Source: a virus. From it: 43,821 nucleotides of DNA. Below are positions 9,037 to 26,054 of this stretch, in pieces. The notes under the pieces were generated by a model. The model was not told where the DNA came from. It ran no database searches and worked only from the letters and a program-made list of their open reading frames with translations. The position numbers and the translations under genes are program-made. The stretch lies in IMG/VR virus record IMGVR_UViG_3300044998_000297, positions 1 to 43,821 of that record. One strand, given 5' to 3'. How positions within the stretch are numbered: position 1 is the first letter of the stretch; every line of letters starts with the position of its first letter.

Positions 9037-9612
9037 ATGAATACCTTTCTTACATACCCTAATGATCTTGAATCAAGTCGATCACTCGACTATCGTCGTC
9101 TCGGTAAACAACGAGTTGAAACTCTTCAGCTACTACAAACAATCTTAAAAGGTGATTTAGCTAAAGGTTGGAAAAATCACCCGTCTACTAAAATTTGGCG
9201 CGACCATCCTTTTGCTTTAGCTATTTATGGAGTTTCCAATTGTTTTGCATGGACCGATCTCGGATATAAAGACTCTTGCGGACTTAAAATATCCGAATTG
9301 GTTCTTCAATTAAACGACGCTGGTCTTTTGAAGTCCAAAGAGTCCGCTTTTATCGATGAAGTTGGGCGAGATGTTTTGTCTGTTTATTCACAGCTCCAAA
9401 CAATTGTTGCTTTAGAGCATGCGTCTTATCTTTGTGGTAATACGAAATATAAATGGGCTCGGCCAGACTGGTATTTCGATCAAGAAGTTCATTCAAAGTA
9501 TAGAGCTAGTCTCTTATACAAGTCGCTTAATCAGAACCCAAATGAATCAACAATCCTTCACTATAAAAGATTTACATGGTCGGAGACTCCTGAATATGGA
9601 TATAAATGGTAA
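9037..9612 (+). CDS. pyrimidine-dimer DNA glycosylase-like protein
   Basis: The 191-residue product begins Met-Asn-Thr-Phe-Leu-Thr-Tyr-Pro and has Asp-Tyr-Arg-Arg-Leu-Gly-Lys-Gln-Arg-Val-Glu near residues 18-28, followed by Gly-Trp-Lys-Asn-His-Pro. This N-terminal signature matches the MSMEG_6572/pyrimidine dimer DNA glycosylase family found in actinobacteria and many phages. Such enzymes cut the glycosidic bond at ultraviolet-induced dimers. The remainder is Trp/Tyr-rich and helical. It has its own promoter with a palindrome in the spacer. The assignment rests on recall of the N-terminal signature; activity on dimers is not proven for most phage copies. Confidence 0.65.
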   Translation: MNTFLTYPNDLESSRSLDYRRLGKQRVETLQLLQTILKGDLAKGWKNHPSTKIWRDHPFALAIYGVSNCFAWTDLGYKDSCGLKISELVLQLNDAGLLKSKESAFIDEVGRDVLSVYSQLQTIVALEHASYLCGNTKYKWARPDWYFDQEVHSKYRASLLYKSLNQNPNESTILHYKRFTWSETPEYGYKW

Positions 9613-20198: not shown

Positions 20199-20525
20199 AT
20201 GCAGGCAAATACATACCTCAAGATGAATCTGACCGACGACCAATTGGTGACCCTTAACAAGGCTGCTTACGGTGAAGACGGTCGAGCAAGCCGACAACAA
20301 GTTCGTGCTTTCGTTGGTACCGTCGTTAAGAACGCTTTCGAGCAAATCGGAATTCCAGCGGAGTTCCAAAATGCAGACGAGATTTTTATCGACCCTGACA
20401 ATCAAAAGAAGCGAGGTCGACCTCGAAAGAATACATCCCACGATGATTCTAAAACGTCCTCTGTCAACGAATCCGAAGACGAAGACGGTGGTACGGAAGC
20501 CGCTGAGGAATACGGAGAAGAGTAA
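20199..20525 (+). CDS. AT-hook protein, 108 aa
   Basis: Residues 70-77, Lys-Lys-Arg-Gly-Arg-Pro-Arg-Lys, are a textbook AT-hook, which inserts into the minor groove of AT-rich DNA. The first 60 residues form a small helical domain with a Ser-Arg-Gln-Gln-Val-Arg helix. The last 28 are Ser/Asp/Glu-rich and strongly acidic. The mix of an AT-hook and an acidic tail suggests a DNA-organising or regulatory protein. It lies between the DUF932-like gene and the dUTPase-like gene, and the latter starts on its stop codon (TAATG). The AT-hook is clear; the function is inferred. Confidence 0.65.
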   Translation: MQANTYLKMNLTDDQLVTLNKAAYGEDGRASRQQVRAFVGTVVKNAFEQIGIPAEFQNADEIFIDPDNQKKRGRPRKNTSHDDSKTSSVNESEDEDGGTEAAEEYGEE

Positions 20526-21016
20526 TGGATCGCCTGGGTGAAATATTTTCACTTCAGGCAAAATTGATCGACCGGCTAGGGACTAAAACCGCCGGTCGAT
20601 TGATTTTTCCAGAAAGTGAAATTAACGACGGCCAAGAAAATGTTTGCGATATCGCGACGCTATCTAATCATAAAGACAGTTTATGTGATATTGAAACAGG
20701 GCAAACTGTAGAATTTGCTTTGTATGAAGAAATTCAGCAGTCCACTCGCAAGATGATCGCTGAGGCGTCTGAGATTCTAGATTGGACTCCTTGGAAGCCG
20801 TGGTCTAAACAGCTCGGTAACAAGTCGCCTGATTTTCCAATTGAAAAACACTTTTCGGAAGAACACCTTAGGGAAATAAGAATGGAAGTTGTTGACCAAC
20901 TGCATTTCGTCATTGAAGCCGCTCAAATCCTTGGTATGTCCTCCGATGATTTGTATCAAATGTATCTTGAGAAAAACGGGATTAACCATCAACGACAAGA
21001 CTCTGGAAAATACTAA
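20525..21016 (+). CDS. all-alpha dUTPase/dCTPase-like nucleotide pyrophosphohydrolase
   Basis: A 163-residue protein with the all-alpha NTP pyrophosphatase pattern: an N-terminal Phe-Ser-Leu-Gln-Ala-Lys-Leu helix; Glu-Glu-Ile-Gln... Glu-Ala-Ser-Glu with Trp-Thr-Pro-Trp-Lys-Pro-Trp; then Glu-Val-Val-Asp-Gln-Leu-His-Phe, Leu-Gly-Met-Ser and Asn-His-Gln-Arg-Gln-Asp-Ser-Gly-Lys-Tyr near the end. Acidic residues in the two helix pairs bind magnesium. These dimeric enzymes cut dUTP to dUMP, and T4 gp56 of the same fold also destroys dCTP. Given the downstream modification genes, a dCTPase or dual role is plausible. The family is secure; substrate preference cannot be read from sequence. Confidence 0.8.
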   Translation: MDRLGEIFSLQAKLIDRLGTKTAGRLIFPESEINDGQENVCDIATLSNHKDSLCDIETGQTVEFALYEEIQQSTRKMIAEASEILDWTPWKPWSKQLGNKSPDFPIEKHFSEEHLREIRMEVVDQLHFVIEAAQILGMSSDDLYQMYLEKNGINHQRQDSGKY

Positions 21017-22191
21017 TGGAAATAGGCATTTGCGCTCACGCTAATTTACATGGGCCCGCGAATGCTCCGACCGACAATGCGAGGAGGCACCACCTCCTCG
21101 TAAATTACATTAAGTCGGTTTTCGGAGTGAGCCCTCATTGGTTTCAATTCAAGGCTTTAAATGGCCAATTGACACCTAATCTTCACGACCCTCTTGAAAT
21201 CGAAGCTTTTTCTAACGTCATTCATTATGGCGATTCAATGAGAGAGTTGTGTGAACAAAGTATGGACGCTTTTACTAAGTTAAAATCAGCAAACTTCCAT
21301 ACTTATAATTTTGATCCACTTTCACTTCAATATCAACTCCCAAAATTAGATGTCCTTGTGATGTTTGCTACTAGTCAAATAACTCCTAGTTATTCGATGG
21401 TTGCACTTCTAAAATTGCTGACCGATATCAATCCAAAGCTAAGTTTGGTTCTCATCGACCAGGATTTATCACATGGTTCAATAACTTCAAAAATAAGAAA
21501 ATGGAAATCTCAAGCTCCTGACTTGAAAATACACGTTATTCATGACAATTTCAAAAAAGACAAATCGGTTGACATTGTATCGAGTCAATCTCACATGGCT
21601 TTTCCATACATTGATTCTTTCGAAAGAGAAATTCTGACCTACGGTTATAAACCTGAAGTTGCTTACATTGGAAACGATTACGACCGAAGAGAAGTCATGC
21701 AGTTATTCTTCCAAGGGCCAGAGGTTCATTGGTACGGTCGAAAAAAGAAAGACTTCGATGAAGAGTGTCCGACGAACTGTATTCATCACGGCCCGTTTAA
21801 GTGGGAAGTGCCTATTGAAGACAAATATCGAGAACACACGTTCGGAATTAATATAAGCCGTGAGAAATACTATAAGAGAAGGCAGTATTCCCCTCGGTTT
21901 CTCGAGATTACTCAGTCTGGAGTCCCGTTCTTTTCACATTCCAAGTACGCCAACGCCGCTTCATTCACTACTGAATTTTTTGTTGTAGATGGATATAGCG
22001 ATCTTTTCCAGAAATTACATATTGCTTGTCAATCTGATTCTTTTTGTGCCGATACCGCAGCTTACCAACGTCAAGCAATCAAGTCAATTTTTTCTCCAGA
22101 AAGATGGCTCGATACGATTGGTACCGTTATCAACGGGGCCTATCATCAAATGGAAGGATTTTCTATCAACCATTACGAAGGAATACTATGA
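21016..22191 (+). CDS. GT-B-like glycosyltransferase
   Basis: The 391-residue product looks like a two-lobed GT-B glycosyltransferase of the CgeB/DUF3880 type. The N-terminal lobe has Rossmann-like strands (Leu-Asp-Val-Leu-Val-Met-Phe, Leu-Ser-Leu-Val-Leu-Ile-Asp). The second lobe starts around 216-225 with Ala-Tyr-Ile-Gly-Asn-Asp-Tyr-Asp-Arg-Arg, then Val-His-Trp-Tyr-Gly-Arg. A donor-binding stretch near 287-310 has Tyr-Ser-Pro-Arg-Phe-Leu-Glu-Ile-Thr-Gln-Ser-Gly-Val-Pro. In such enzymes this Glu contacts the sugar nucleotide. It is coupled to the dUTPase-like gene by TAATG and followed by the kinase, deaminase and thymidylate-synthase-family genes, so modified DNA bases are its most likely acceptor. 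A wall or virion sugar acceptor remains possible. Confidence 0.62.
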   Translation: MEIGICAHANLHGPANAPTDNARRHHLLVNYIKSVFGVSPHWFQFKALNGQLTPNLHDPLEIEAFSNVIHYGDSMRELCEQSMDAFTKLKSANFHTYNFDPLSLQYQLPKLDVLVMFATSQITPSYSMVALLKLLTDINPKLSLVLIDQDLSHGSITSKIRKWKSQAPDLKIHVIHDNFKKDKSVDIVSSQSHMAFPYIDSFEREILTYGYKPEVAYIGNDYDRREVMQLFFQGPEVHWYGRKKKDFDEECPTNCIHHGPFKWEVPIEDKYREHTFGINISREKYYKRRQYSPRFLEITQSGVPFFSHSKYANAASFTTEFFVVDGYSDLFQKLHIACQSDSFCADTAAYQRQAIKSIFSPERWLDTIGTVINGAYHQMEGFSINHYEGIL

Positions 22192-22412
22192 AAAACATCC
22201 AAGAGCTTATAGAAGAAGCCAAGCAAGAACCCCCCAGAACCGTCTCTCGTGATCTTTTAGATCACGTGCCTGTTTCCATACGGCCACCTAAAGAAAAAGT
22301 GCAGAGAGATGGTTCTAGACGTTCTTTCTCAAACTATCACAAACTTTTAGATACATTTATCAATATGGATACGCTGATGTTAAAGACCCTGAAGGAGACA
22401 AAATCGTGTTAG
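22188..22412 (+). CDS. hypothetical protein, 74 aa
   Basis: The ATG overlaps the glycosyltransferase stop by four bases. The product is hydrophilic and basic in the middle (Pro-Pro-Lys-Glu-Lys-Val), with a helical C-terminal half ending Cys. No family recognised. It overlaps the kinase start by 7 bp and could be a small subunit or adaptor of either neighbour. Confidence 0.55.
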   Translation: MKNIQELIEEAKQEPPRTVSRDLLDHVPVSIRPPKEKVQRDGSRRSFSNYHKLLDTFINMDTLMLKTLKETKSC

Positions 22413-23191
22413 TTTTGTTCGGACCCGACAGATGTGGAAAAACTACTGTTGCTGAAAAAGTTGTAAACGGGTTAGGCTATATGTATATGCATCATACTGT
22501 ACCACCGTATGACCCTTTCGCATATTTCACTCAATTTCTTGTTTGTGCTAGTAGAAACGTTGTGGTCGACAGAAACCACCTTTGCGAATACGCTTACGGG
22601 CACACATACAGAGGCCAATCGGGGATAACCGATCATAACTTTAAACTCCTAACCGCTGCATATTACGCTCATTACCCGGTATTCGTGAGAATGACCGATG
22701 AAAAAGAAAGCGTGCGAAGCAGGTGGGGAGAAGAAGAGCCATTTGACTTCGAAAAATTTGATGAGCTTCAACGTCATTATGATGAGGTTCTAAAGAAATA
22801 CAGAATCCCTCATTTAGTTCGATCTCTAAACGAATTTCAATTGGCTGACTCTCAACATAGAGGGCTTCCAAGAGGGCAAAGTCCTCAAAACATCATTGGT
22901 TCGGTGTATCTTGCCGATATTCACATTGCCTATCGCGATGAGACTGTGTGTATCAAAAACGATAATAAGTCTATTCCATTTGTCGGAAACACTCGCCAGT
23001 CGAGAGGTTTAGTTGAATCAATTTTTGAAAACTTCGACTATGATCGATTTACTATTGAAAATTACAGTGGCATAAAGCCAGGGAATATCGTTATCGAATC
23101 AAAAAAGGGATCGAAAGACGCCGTGACTTTGCCTTTTAACGACACAAAAAACATTTTGGATACGATTCAGAGGATGCTCAATGAGAATTGA
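22406..23191 (+). CDS. dNMP-kinase-like P-loop enzyme with extra C-terminal domain
   Basis: It starts at GTG (22406) with GAAGGAG at 22391-22397. The P-loop Gly-Pro-Asp-Arg-Cys-Gly-Lys-Thr-Thr is at residues 6-14. Val-Val-Asp-Arg-Asn-His near residue 53 corresponds to the DR(Y/H) nucleotide-binding motif of thymidylate kinases, and Arg-Ser-Arg-Trp-Gly provides a lid-like segment. The kinase part is about 160 residues. About 100 more follow, containing Gln-Ser-Pro-Gln-Asn-Ile-Ile-Gly-Ser-Val-Tyr and a beta-rich end that I do not recognise. In T4 the gp1 kinase phosphorylates hydroxymethyl-dCMP; this gene sits in the matching place. A DNA-level base kinase is an alternative. Confidence 0.68.
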   Translation: MLVLFGPDRCGKTTVAEKVVNGLGYMYMHHTVPPYDPFAYFTQFLVCASRNVVVDRNHLCEYAYGHTYRGQSGITDHNFKLLTAAYYAHYPVFVRMTDEKESVRSRWGEEEPFDFEKFDELQRHYDEVLKKYRIPHLVRSLNEFQLADSQHRGLPRGQSPQNIIGSVYLADIHIAYRDETVCIKNDNKSIPFVGNTRQSRGLVESIFENFDYDRFTIENYSGIKPGNIVIESKKGSKDAVTLPFNDTKNILDTIQRMLNEN

Positions 23192-23663
23192 TACTGAAGA
23201 CTATTTCCTTTTGCTTTGTCAAACAATTAGTATGAAATCTTCTTGCGAAAGAAGAAAAGTAGGTGCCGTTTTGACAAAAGAAAAACGTGTTATTTCGACT
23301 GGTTATAACGGCTCAGTTCCTGGCTCTACAAATTGTGACAGTGGAGAAACCTGCCAATCAAATGGCAGATGCATCCTTACGATTCACGCTGAAATAAATG
23401 CTCTTATGAGAGCGAGAGAAGTGGCCGACCAATTATGGTGCACGGATACACCGTGCTTCACTTGTCTCAAGTCAATCCTAAGTTATAATCCAGAGATTGA
23501 AATCATTTGGTTAAGAAAATATGAAGATGCACAGAGAGATGAATACATCGAAAAAGTACTCAAGAATGAAGTAAATATTCGTCAATTTAGGTCGTCTGCG
23601 ATTTCAAGAAACCGCTCCGTCATTAACTCGATGTTTGAGGAATACAATGCACTTCTCGATTAA
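23181..23663 (+). CDS. dCMP deaminase
   Basis: A 160-residue zinc deaminase with the catalytic His69-Ala-Glu71 and Pro91-Cys92-Phe-Thr-Cys95, binding the active-site zinc and activating water. Cys52, Cys58 and Cys64 between Gly-Tyr-Asn-Gly and the HAE motif could hold a second, structural zinc, as described for T4 dCMP deaminase. It converts dCMP to dUMP for thymidylate synthesis. It overlaps the kinase gene by 11 bp at the start and the next gene by 17 bp at the end. The assignment is secure. Confidence 0.88.
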   Translation: MRIDTEDYFLLLCQTISMKSSCERRKVGAVLTKEKRVISTGYNGSVPGSTNCDSGETCQSNGRCILTIHAEINALMRAREVADQLWCTDTPCFTCLKSILSYNPEIEIIWLRKYEDAQRDEYIEKVLKNEVNIRQFRSSAISRNRSVINSMFEEYNALLD

Positions 23664-24558
23664 GAATTTTCCAGAAAGCTACTTTAGAATTTACCAATCG
23701 ATTTCTGAAAAAGGCGAAAGACTCTCCCCGCGAGGAAAAAATTGTGTTGAGTTGAGACCTTACTACTTAACAATTAACAATCCGCTTGAATGTATCTACG
23801 TAGGCAAAGAAAGAGGCCTAAACCTTAAATTTATGGCTGTAGAGACACTTGGATATATTGCTGGTCTAGGCGGAGACTTAAATGATAAATGGTTTGTTGA
23901 TCTTTTATGCTCTACAAATAGAAACTATTCAAATTTCGTTAATGACAAAGGTTTTATGGATGGAGCATACGGAAATAGGCTCATAAAAAGTTTGCCGCAA
24001 GTATGTGATTTGTTGAAGTCTGACCCAGATAGCCGACAAGCTGTAGCTTCTATTTGGAGACCTGAATTCCCTAATTTGCCATCTAAAGATGTGCCCTGTA
24101 CTGTAGCGCTTAATTTCTTTAGGTCAAAAGGAAAGTTAGATCTCGTTACTCATATGAGATCTAACGATATTAATTGGGGTACGCCTTATGATATTCCAGC
24201 TTTTGTTACTATTCAGGCTCTTGTAGCCTCTTTATGCGGATTAGAAGTCGGACGATACCACCACTCAGTAGGTAGTATGCACTACTATGAAGATACTAAA
24301 CCGTCTTTAGACCCGAGTATCGGAAGAACCGATCTCAAGATGTCGGTACCGGTCCTTAAGCTACCGAATAATCATTCAATAGACTATAATACGGTCTCGA
24401 AATTCGCAAAGATTTTTCTCTGGGAAATGTATGTTATGTGGCAAAGAGAGCCTAAGTTTTACATTGAAGCAATACTTTGTCGAGATGATTTCCCGGAAGA
24501 ACTTAAAGATTATTTCAGAATTTTCGGAAGAATGATAGAAATTGGGAAAATAAAGTAA
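23647..24558 (+). CDS. thymidylate-synthase-family enzyme, likely dCMP (hydroxy)methylase
   Basis: I chose the ATG at 23647 (GAGG at 23637-23640) over the upstream TTG at 23635. The 303-residue product keeps the ThyA core: Asp-Gly-Ala-Tyr-Gly-Asn-Arg, Arg-Gln-Ala-Val-Ala-Ser-Ile, catalytic Cys151 in Val-Pro-Cys-Thr, Arg171-Ser-Asn-Asp, and Gly-Ser-Met-His212-Tyr-Tyr214. The decisive position is Gly-Thr-Pro-Tyr-Asp182-Ile: thymidylate synthases have Asn there (E. coli Asn177, 31 residues after Cys146), and T4 dCMP hydroxymethylase has Asp179 (31 after Cys148). Here the spacing is also 31. Asp pairs with cytosine, so dCMP is the predicted substrate. Whether it adds a methyl or hydroxymethyl group cannot be read. 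Activity as a diverged thymidylate synthase is the alternative. Confidence 0.78.
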   Translation: MHFSIKNFPESYFRIYQSISEKGERLSPRGKNCVELRPYYLTINNPLECIYVGKERGLNLKFMAVETLGYIAGLGGDLNDKWFVDLLCSTNRNYSNFVNDKGFMDGAYGNRLIKSLPQVCDLLKSDPDSRQAVASIWRPEFPNLPSKDVPCTVALNFFRSKGKLDLVTHMRSNDINWGTPYDIPAFVTIQALVASLCGLEVGRYHHSVGSMHYYEDTKPSLDPSIGRTDLKMSVPVLKLPNNHSIDYNTVSKFAKIFLWEMYVMWQREPKFYIEAILCRDDFPEELKDYFRIFGRMIEIGKIK

Positions 24559-24567
24559 AAAACGTAG

Positions 24568-24573
24568 TATATT
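24568..24573 (+). promoter_or_regulatory. weak -10 box before the C5 methyltransferase
   Basis: TATATT ends ten bases before the ATG at 24584, giving a predicted leader of only 3-4 bases. No Shine-Dalgarno is visible in the gap and no good -35. It may be a near-leaderless promoter, but it is the weakest of the set. Confidence 0.35.
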
Positions 24574-24583
24574 TAGTTTAGCT

Positions 24584-25633
24584 ATGGAAGCCGTCGGATA
24601 CCTGATCGGAGCAGGTTCTATGTCTATAGGCGTTGAGAATGCTGGTTTTGAAATAAAGTCAATTTATGAAACCCCAGGATATTCAAAAAATGCCATTCAT
24701 TGGGACCTCAATCGACCGCAATTAAAACACTCAGTTGTCGAATTAGATCATGAATTCGATGGCTTTTCTAGGCATAAGGACATAGATTTGTTCTACGGTA
24801 ATCCGCCTTGTAGCGGATTATCTTCTATGACCGGCTCAAAGTTAACTTCAGAGGCAAATCTATGTATGAGACACTGGATCAGAATGGTTGTAAAAGCCGA
24901 ACCGAAAATGATCTTAATGGAAAACGCGTACGCCTTTGCTTCAGATCGCGTATGGCCAATCAGAAAAGATTTAGCCGATGTTTTAGAAGACAACGGATAC
25001 TCTTGGTGGACCTGGAGCCATTGGTCTTGGCAAACAGGAACACCTCAGAAAAGAAGAAGAACTTTTCTTTGCGCTACAAAGTTAGACATACCAAACAAAG
25101 AAAAAATCTTTGATCAATTTAACCCAGTAAGAGATCCGAAGATGAACGTTTATGAGTTTATTAAACAGTGGGAAGATATAGAACCATCTCCCGATAATAA
25201 ACACTCTCATTGGTACGGTGCGAAAAATTACGATAGAATTAAAGGATCTTTTGATAAGATAGACAAATACCGAGAGATTGGCCAAAGACTTATTGGACCT
25301 AGAGTCAAATCTACTCTTAAAAACGGTGAGAGTGGAAAATATATTTACGATGAGAATTGCCCTCAAGAATGGGATATTCGCATGATGATGTTCCGCCCAA
25401 ACTTCATTGGCAGAACGGACGTTTCTGGAGCAATTATCGGGTGTTATAAATATATTCACCCAACTAAACAAAGATATTTAACGTTTAGAGAGCATGCTGC
25501 TCTTATGGGATATCCAGACGACTTCATGTTCGTTCCTGGAGTCTATGATCCGAATCACATTTCGCAAGGAGTTCCAGCGAATAATGTAACTCACGTTCTT
25601 AATCGATTCAAAGAGGTGTTAGGTGTTAACTGA
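24584..25633 (+). CDS. C5-cytosine DNA methyltransferase
   Basis: A 349-residue Dcm-type enzyme. Motif IV is Gly-Asn-Pro-Pro-Cys76-Ser with the catalytic cysteine. Motif VI is Met-Glu113-Asn114-Ala, where most have Glu-Asn-Val. Motif VIII is Gln155-Lys-Arg-Arg-Arg. Motif IX-like Tyr-Leu-Thr-Phe-Arg-Glu-His-Ala-Ala-Leu-Met-Gly-Tyr-Pro and motif X-like Gln-Gly-Val-Pro-Ala-Asn-Asn-Val lie near the C-terminus. Motif I (Gly-Ala-Gly-Ser-Met-Ser) is at 9-14. It methylates cytosine from S-adenosylmethionine; the target-recognition region (roughly 165-285) cannot be matched to a site. It may protect phage DNA from restriction, or act on modified cytosine. The next gene starts 11 bases before its end. 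Confidence 0.85.
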   Translation: MEAVGYLIGAGSMSIGVENAGFEIKSIYETPGYSKNAIHWDLNRPQLKHSVVELDHEFDGFSRHKDIDLFYGNPPCSGLSSMTGSKLTSEANLCMRHWIRMVVKAEPKMILMENAYAFASDRVWPIRKDLADVLEDNGYSWWTWSHWSWQTGTPQKRRRTFLCATKLDIPNKEKIFDQFNPVRDPKMNVYEFIKQWEDIEPSPDNKHSHWYGAKNYDRIKGSFDKIDKYREIGQRLIGPRVKSTLKNGESGKYIYDENCPQEWDIRMMMFRPNFIGRTDVSGAIIGCYKYIHPTKQRYLTFREHAALMGYPDDFMFVPGVYDPNHISQGVPANNVTHVLNRFKEVLGVN

Positions 25634-26054
25634 GTCGAGCTTATACAAGCCAATTGTTGTCGGCGCCAATAAAGAAAATTGGAGTCTCTATAGAATAGGA
25701 GATTCACCATACGGAAGAAAACCTTTTGACATCGGAGGGGCCGATCCAGACGGAAGATCTGTCGCTATTGAAGTAAAAATAGCTACCGCTTTCAATGGTC
25801 AAATATTTCCTTGGGATTCTTTTGAGGCCCACCAATTAACATGGATCAAAAGAATTAACGAGGTTAACGGAATTGGATTATTAGCCATTTACGAAGTAAG
25901 CACGAGCAAGATGTTCTTGTTCTGGCCAAAAGGAGATCAAATTGGAAGAGCAAATCTTTTTATGATTCCTAAGTGCATAATCAAAGGAAGCACATCAAAA
26001 GAGTTTTACGGATGGAATGTCGCAATGGAAGATATGAGGAAGCAACGTGGCTGA
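25623..26054 (+). CDS. RecU-like PD-(D/E)XK nuclease, putative Holliday junction resolvase
   Basis: It starts at GTG (25623) with GAGG upstream and overlaps the methyltransferase by 11 bp. The 143-residue product has the nuclease signature Pro-Phe-Asp36-Ile-Gly-Gly... Ile-Glu50-Val-Lys52, then a Phe-Glu-Ala-His-Gln helix and an Asn-Gly-Ile-Gly-Leu-Leu-Ala-Ile strand, an order that fits RecU-type Holliday junction resolvases. It would resolve branched DNA before packaging. The direct pairing with a methyltransferase leaves open a restriction-type nuclease, but the downstream helix and strand favour RecU. Confidence 0.65.
   Translation: MLTESSLYKPIVVGANKENWSLYRIGDSPYGRKPFDIGGADPDGRSVAIEVKIATAFNGQIFPWDSFEAHQLTWIKRINEVNGIGLLAIYEVSTSKMFLFWPKGDQIGRANLFMIPKCIIKGSTSKEFYGWNVAMEDMRKQRG

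What the first reader, a model, noticed from the sequence alone, without database searches (positions are those of the whole stretch)
20525..25633. T4-style cytosine substitution and glycosylation cassette in a siphovirus-like phage
Five coupled genes match the enzymes T4 uses to build glucosylated hydroxymethylcytosine: an all-alpha dUTPase/dCTPase-like enzyme (gp56 type), a GT-B glycosyltransferase (alpha- or beta-gt), a P-loop dNMP kinase (gp1 type), a dCMP deaminase (cd) and a ThyA-family enzyme with the dCMP-specific Asp (gp42 type). They are adjacent and share overlapping starts and stops. The families are recognised from sequence motifs; the combined pathway is inference. Such DNA would resist many restriction and CRISPR nucleases. 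The cassette occurs outside T4-like genomes, with an added C5 methyltransferase and an unknown domain on the kinase.
Basis: partly seen in the sequence, partly recalled or inferred. Interest (0 to 1): 0.85.

Follow-up and report, generated by a model that had tools for sequence, protein, structure and literature searches.

The report
Phage glycosylated-cytosine DNA cassette
An uncultivated phage, unrelated to T4, carries a compact gene set that very probably swaps cytosine in its DNA for hydroxymethylcytosine and then attaches a sugar; its sugar-transfer enzyme belongs to a little-known family, distantly related to T4's, that we found next to the same partner genes in dozens of other uncultivated phages.

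Summary
All the genes are at the stated coordinates, and each family assignment was tested. The ThyA-family protein carries the dCMP-specific Asp (D186) and the water-activating Asp three residues before the catalytic Cys (D152). This is the published dCMP-hydroxymethylase signature, except that T4 Ser94 is Gly. The gp56-type pyrophosphatase (35% identity over 82 aa to T4 gp56) and the dCMP deaminase are confirmed. The GT call, unsupported by Pfam, PHROGs, PDB sequence or BLAST, was confirmed another way. A motif search found 55 relatives in IMG/VR. Their profile hits both the window protein (E 2e-15; 1e-8 with the motif masked) and T4 beta-GT (E 1e-14). A model built on them matches T4 beta- and alpha-GT best. 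Linkage is strong: 51 of 55 relatives lie near the same kinase and 39 near a ThyA. All 37 longer ThyAs have the dCMP Asp, against no ThyA in 34 chance-motif loci. Four representatives and the window protein have no tblastn match in 50,697 phage records. This is a T4-like chemistry built from non-T4 parts: a new variant of a known kind. Sugar, linkage, extent of substitution and the C5-methyltransferase's role are undetermined.

The parts
20525..21016 (+). All-alpha NTP pyrophosphatase, dCTPase/dUTPase of the T4 gp56 kind
   Evidence: PF08761 E 6.4e-10; phrog_173 1.9e-14; blastp to T4 gp56 35% over 82 aa, E 4e-11
21016..22191 (+). GT-B glycosyltransferase, DNA beta-GT-like; invariant D148, D150, Y217-G219-N220, R224, and R294/E297 aligned to T4 beta-GT R269/E272
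   Evidence: Profile of 55 IMG/VR relatives: window E 2.2e-15, motif masked 1.1e-8, T4 beta-GT 1.3e-14; AF2 pLDDT 69.6, pTM 0.73; best PDB matches T4 beta-GT; residue columns
22188..22412 (+). 74-aa ORF of unknown function between GT and kinase
   Evidence: ORF only; no family
22406..23191 (+). P-loop nucleotide kinase with an unidentified C-terminal extension (about residues 150-261); proposed 5-hydroxymethyl-dCMP kinase
   Evidence: phrog_761 2.1e-7; family gene directly upstream of the dCMP-type ThyA in most of 80 IMG/VR loci
23181..23663 (+). dCMP deaminase
   Evidence: PF00383 1.6e-13; phrog_174 8.4e-29; HAE and PCFTC zinc motifs read in the sequence
23635..24558 (+). ThyA-family enzyme, predicted dCMP 5-hydroxymethylase (D152, C155, T156, D186, E70, Y112)
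   Evidence: PF00303 1.6e-20; signature residues
24584..25633 (+). DNA C5-cytosine methyltransferase with PPC, EN and QKRRR motifs
   Evidence: PF00145 2e-24; motifs read in the sequence

Best explanation
The cassette makes glycosylated 5-hydroxymethylcytosine DNA by T4 logic. The gp56-type enzyme removes dCTP (and dUTP), giving dCMP. The ThyA-family enzyme adds a hydroxymethyl group from methylene-THF to dCMP. The P-loop kinase starts the conversion of hm-dCMP to the triphosphate, which the phage polymerase incorporates. The GT-B enzyme then transfers a sugar from a nucleotide sugar onto hmC in the DNA. The dCMP deaminase diverts surplus dCMP to dUMP for thymine synthesis. The C5 methyltransferase is an accessory that may protect unsubstituted cytosines. 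Supported by sequence and structure evidence: enzyme families, catalytic residues, GT relationship, gene linkage. Inferred: reaction order, sugar, extent of substitution, resistance to nucleases.
For: ThyA residues match T4 gp42 at every determinant tested but one: D186 (T4 D179), D152 (D145), C155, E70, Y112, R134, S176, T156. E. coli ThyA has N, L and H at 186, 152 and 156 (roles in PMC6400193 and PMC8670742). gp56 homology. GT: profile E 2.2e-15, motif-masked 1.1e-8, T4 beta-GT found by the same profile at 1.3e-14, 600 shuffles no better than E about 7. AF2 confidence rose from pLDDT 35 to 70 with the family alignment, and the best PDB matches are T4 beta-GT (E 1.2e-6; Z 17.8) and alpha-GT (Z 17.3). 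Linkage: kinase in 51 of 55 and ThyA in 39 of 55 GT loci, against ThyA in 0 of 34 chance-motif loci; all 37 linked ThyAs have the dCMP Asp. L170 carries pyrophosphatase, kinase, GT, ThyA and deaminase together.
Against: T4 Ser94 is Gly110 here. The kinase shows no significant similarity to gp1. A C5 methyltransferase would have little substrate if all C were hmC. The window GT is only 14-23% identical to its relatives, and some other GT-B enzymes lie within about 1 Z unit of T4 beta-GT. No biochemical data.
Confidence: 0.82

Rival explanations
1. The genes are an ordinary thymidylate supply set (dUTPase, dCMP deaminase, thymidylate synthase, dTMP kinase), with an unrelated GT beside it.
For: The same four families make dTTP; phage annotations call the relatives thymidylate synthase and thymidylate kinase.
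Against: Asp not Asn at the specificity position, Asp at C-3 and Thr at C+1; GT family linked to this ThyA type in dozens of phages.
Confidence: 0.06
2. The ThyA-family enzyme is a dCMP methylase making 5-methyl-dCMP, and the GT acts elsewhere (cell surface or protein).
For: The Asn-to-Asp change alone turns thymidylate synthase into a dCMP methylase (cited in PMC8670742); phage Xp12 has a dCMP methylase (cited in PMC5175136); Ser94 is missing here.
Against: The C-3 Asp that activates water for hydroxymethylation is present, as in SPO1 dUMP hydroxymethylase; 5-methyl-dC has no hydroxyl for a GT; a C5 methyltransferase would then be redundant.
Confidence: 0.06
3. A variant of the best explanation, not exclusive of most of it: cytosine is modified, but the final product is not glucosyl-5hmC. 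The GT adds another sugar, or the linkage differs, as in RB69 or Thanatos.
For: RB69 arabinosylates (PMC6024577) and Thanatos carries a deoxypentose bound directly to cytosine (PMC12838424) with a similar gene set; the GT is divergent.
Against: None specific; the best structural match is a glucosyltransferase, but that does not fix the sugar.
Confidence: 0.35

Closest known systems
T4 hmC and glucosylation pathway (gp56, gp42, gp1, cd, alpha-/beta-GT)
   Same: Same enzyme classes in the same logical order; same dCMP-HMase signature but for Ser94; GT fold closest to T4 beta- and alpha-GT
   Different: One compact cassette; kinase not recognisably gp1; ThyA not shown to group with gp42; GT outside PF09198; no second GT found in the cassette; added C5 methyltransferase; phage with a DnaE-type polymerase rather than T4's
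Shewanella phage Thanatos (PMC12838424)
   Same: dCTP pyrophosphatase, dCMP deaminase, dCMP hydroxymethylase and GT candidates
   Different: T4-like phage with deoxypentose linked directly to cytosine; its GT candidate is a fused GT and phosphotransferase protein
MetaGPA modified-cytosine phages (PMC8670742)
   Same: D177-type ThyA, dCMP deaminase and pyrophosphohydrolase clustered on modified contigs
   Different: The modifier tested there is a carbamoyltransferase, not a GT
SPO1 gp29 dUMP hydroxymethylase
   Same: Among the nearest characterised ThyA relatives in phage records (35% over 214 aa); also has Asp at C-3
   Different: Has Asn at the specificity position, so uses dUMP

Membership tests
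dCMP hydroxymethylase (T4 gp42 type) | Thymidylate synthase family with catalytic Cys | tested here: met
   PF00303 1.6e-20; C155
dCMP hydroxymethylase (T4 gp42 type) | Asp at T4 position 179 (dCMP specificity) | tested here: met
   D186
dCMP hydroxymethylase (T4 gp42 type) | Asp/Glu three residues before the Cys (T4 D145) | tested here: met
   D152 (PMC6400193)
dCMP hydroxymethylase (T4 gp42 type) | Ser/Thr at T4 position 94 with Tyr two residues on | tested here: not met
   G110 in place of Ser; Y112 is present. Filed as working like gp42, not as a gp42 orthologue
dCMP hydroxymethylase (T4 gp42 type) | Groups with gp42 in a tree | tested here: inconclusive
   Very long gp42 branch, weak forks
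dCMP hydroxymethylase (T4 gp42 type) | Hydroxymethylates dCMP | not testable with these tools
   Needs an enzyme assay
T4 beta-glucosyltransferase family (PF09198) | Match to the family profile | tested here: not met
   No match at E<=10
T4 beta-glucosyltransferase family (PF09198) | GT-B fold, nearest to T4 DNA glucosyltransferases | tested here: met
   Foldseek top six all T4 beta-GT; VIA Z 17.8, some other GT-B enzymes within about 1 Z unit
T4 beta-glucosyltransferase family (PF09198) | Arg269 and Glu272 equivalents | tested here: met
   R294, E297 by profile alignment, 37 of 38 rows
T4 beta-glucosyltransferase family (PF09198) | Glucose transfer from UDP-glucose to hmC DNA | not testable with these tools
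   Needs an assay
T4 gp56 dCTPase/dUTPase | Homology to gp56 and PF08761 | tested here: met
   35% over 82 aa, E 4e-11; PF08761 over cut-off
T4 gp1 dNMP kinase | Sequence homology to gp1 | tested here: not met
   blastp E 0.55
dCMP deaminase | PF00383 with HAE and PCxxC zinc motifs | tested here: met
C5-cytosine DNA methyltransferase | PF00145 with PC and EN motifs | tested here: met

The most novel reading that the evidence does not exclude
The window GT and its 55 IMG/VR relatives are an unrecognised family of DNA-cytosine glycosyltransferases, found so far only in uncultivated phages and coupled to a dCMP hydroxymethylase and a dedicated hm-dCMP kinase, which installs a sugar or linkage different from T4's glucose.
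Probability: 0.4. Interest if true: 0.7.

Novelty: new variant of a known kind. Interest (0 to 1): 0.56.

Why it matters
Glycosylated hmC is known mainly from T4-like phages. This cassette shows the same chemistry probably exists in unrelated phages, assembled from other parts. It also reveals a DNA-GT-like family with no close counterpart in the held collection of phage genomes, a possible source of DNA-modifying enzymes and a marker for predicting which uncultivated phages carry nuclease-resistant DNA.

Tried and rejected
Single-protein scans of IMG/VR with ThyA, GT and kinase and of genome contigs with the GT found nothing. Direct Pfam, PHROG, PDB-sequence and blastp searches of the GT gave no significant hit. 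PF13524, PF09198 and PF13692 against the window gave none. AF2 of the GT without an alignment was useless (pLDDT 35). GT-like genes near other dCMP-type ThyAs (L019, L089) showed no similarity to the window GT. The idea that the kinase extension is the UDG-like domain of its relatives failed: it scores no better than shuffles. The ThyA tree does not resolve the window's place.

Full report
What is there. The window is a 43,821-base virus record. Between 20525 and 25633 lie a pyrophosphatase, a GT, a 74-aa ORF, a P-loop kinase, a dCMP deaminase, a ThyA-family gene and a C5 methyltransferase, on one strand and overlapping up to ThyA. The phage has a DnaE-type polymerase (tblastn), Sak4-like, SNF2 helicase and primase genes, and a head protein of phrog_1005 whose best matches are Pseudomonas and Roseobacter phages. 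It is not T4-like in these genes; tail type was not tested.

Pyrophosphatase, deaminase, methyltransferase. Pfam supports each above its cut-off. The pyrophosphatase is homologous to T4 gp56 (35% over 82 aa, E 4e-11).

ThyA-family enzyme. Published work identifies Asp at T4 179 (E. coli 177) as the dCMP determinant and Asp three residues before the catalytic Cys as the water-activating residue that makes a hydroxymethylase (PMC6400193); positions 177 and 147 also separate modified from unmodified phage contigs (PMC8670742). The window protein has Asp at both sites (D186, D152) and Thr at the 147 equivalent, identical to T4 gp42 and unlike E. coli ThyA (N, L, H). SPO1 gp29, a dUMP hydroxymethylase, has D152 but N186, as expected. 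The ribose-side residues Arg134 and Ser176 are those of deoxynucleotide enzymes (compare PMC5175136). One signature residue fails: T4 Ser94 is Gly110 here, as in 84 of 89 members of this clade. In the tree gp42 has a very long branch, so common or separate origin from gp42 is undecided.

Kinase. An alignment of dCMP-type ThyAs recovered more than 580 relatives from IMG/VR, of which 80 were fetched. In most of them a member of the window's kinase family lies directly upstream of the ThyA gene. This supports a kinase acting on the ThyA product. In many relatives the kinase carries a C-terminal domain resembling uracil-DNA glycosylase (PF03167, best E 3e-6). The window's extension is shorter and not demonstrably the same domain.

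Glycosyltransferase. The protein has no direct database hit. Its segment YIGNDYDRR suggested a motif; two DNA-pattern scans of IMG/VR yielded 55 full or partial family members in as many loci, about 34 distinct at 90% identity. Their profile scores the window protein at E 2.2e-15 and T4 beta-GT, which played no part in building it, at 1.3e-14; with the selecting motif masked the window still scores 1.1e-8, and shuffled sequences score no better than about 7. Several members hit Pfam Glyco_trans_1_2 or, weakly, the beta-glucosyltransferase PHROG. With this alignment AF2 gives pLDDT 69.6 and pTM 0.73, against 34.9 and 0.27 without. The model's best Foldseek matches are six T4 beta-GT structures, and VIA puts T4 beta-GT (Z 17.8, rmsd 3.7, 280 residues) and alpha-GT (Z 17.3) on top, although some other GT-B enzymes are within about one Z unit.

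Linkage. Of the 55 GT loci, 51 carry the kinase and 39 a ThyA within the stretch fetched; of 34 loci that held the DNA motif by chance none carries a ThyA. All 37 longer ThyAs have the dCMP Asp, 35 the C-3 Asp, and 32 also the T4-type Ser94 (the counts of that call include the window protein itself in the 'EGYRDCTSDD' and total rows). L170 has pyrophosphatase, then one intervening gene, kinase, GT, ThyA and deaminase, the last four overlapping. The GT family was found by its own motif, so this association is independent evidence for a role in cytosine modification.

Relation to cultured phages. The window GT and four divergent relatives have no tblastn match in 50,697 GenBank phage records. 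This covers only that collection.

The methyltransferase. A C5 methyltransferase occurs over Pfam's cut-off in 26 of 50 records with this type of ThyA, and directly beside kinase and ThyA in L020. If cytosine were fully replaced it would have little substrate; protection of incompletely substituted DNA is a guess.

Verdict. Glucose as the sugar, complete substitution and nuclease resistance are inference. Thanatos and RB69 show that sugars and linkages vary (PMC12838424, PMC6024577).

Noticed in passing
L019:5058-5984, L064:5079-6008, L014:1714-2727: Kinases directly upstream of dCMP-type ThyA genes are fused to a C-terminal domain resembling uracil-DNA glycosylase (PF03167, best E 3e-6, over cut-off).
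   Followed up: partly
L009 (Pseudomonas phage PMBT14) 6001-9552: A cultured phage with kinase, pyrophosphohydrolase, dCMP-type ThyA and deaminase; its ThyA has the specificity Asp but Arg at C-3, so it may be a dCMP methylase rather than a hydroxymethylase.
   Followed up: no
L005 (Actinomycetia phage DSL-LC01) 2000-4334: A GenBank phage whose kinase-ThyA-deaminase set has the same dCMP-HMase residues as the window; a practical test case.
   Followed up: no
window 9037-9612: Protein matching Pyr_excise (PF03013, E 3e-14), the pyrimidine dimer DNA glycosylase family, to my knowledge that of T4 DenV.
   Followed up: no
L170:6318-7412: Gene between pyrophosphatase and kinase, phrog_9677 (unknown function, E 6e-88), whose start looks by eye like an FAD-binding UDP-galactopyranose mutase; it may hint at the sugar used in that phage.
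   Followed up: no
L089:7917-9775 and L019:9363-10358: Near other dCMP-type ThyAs: a MobA-like nucleotidyltransferase beside a 399-aa protein, and a 332-aa protein, both GT-like by eye but unlike the window GT; possibly other modification routes.
   Followed up: partly
window 25623-26054: Small nuclease-like protein weakly matching RecU (E 0.007), overlapping the end of the methyltransferase gene.
   Followed up: no
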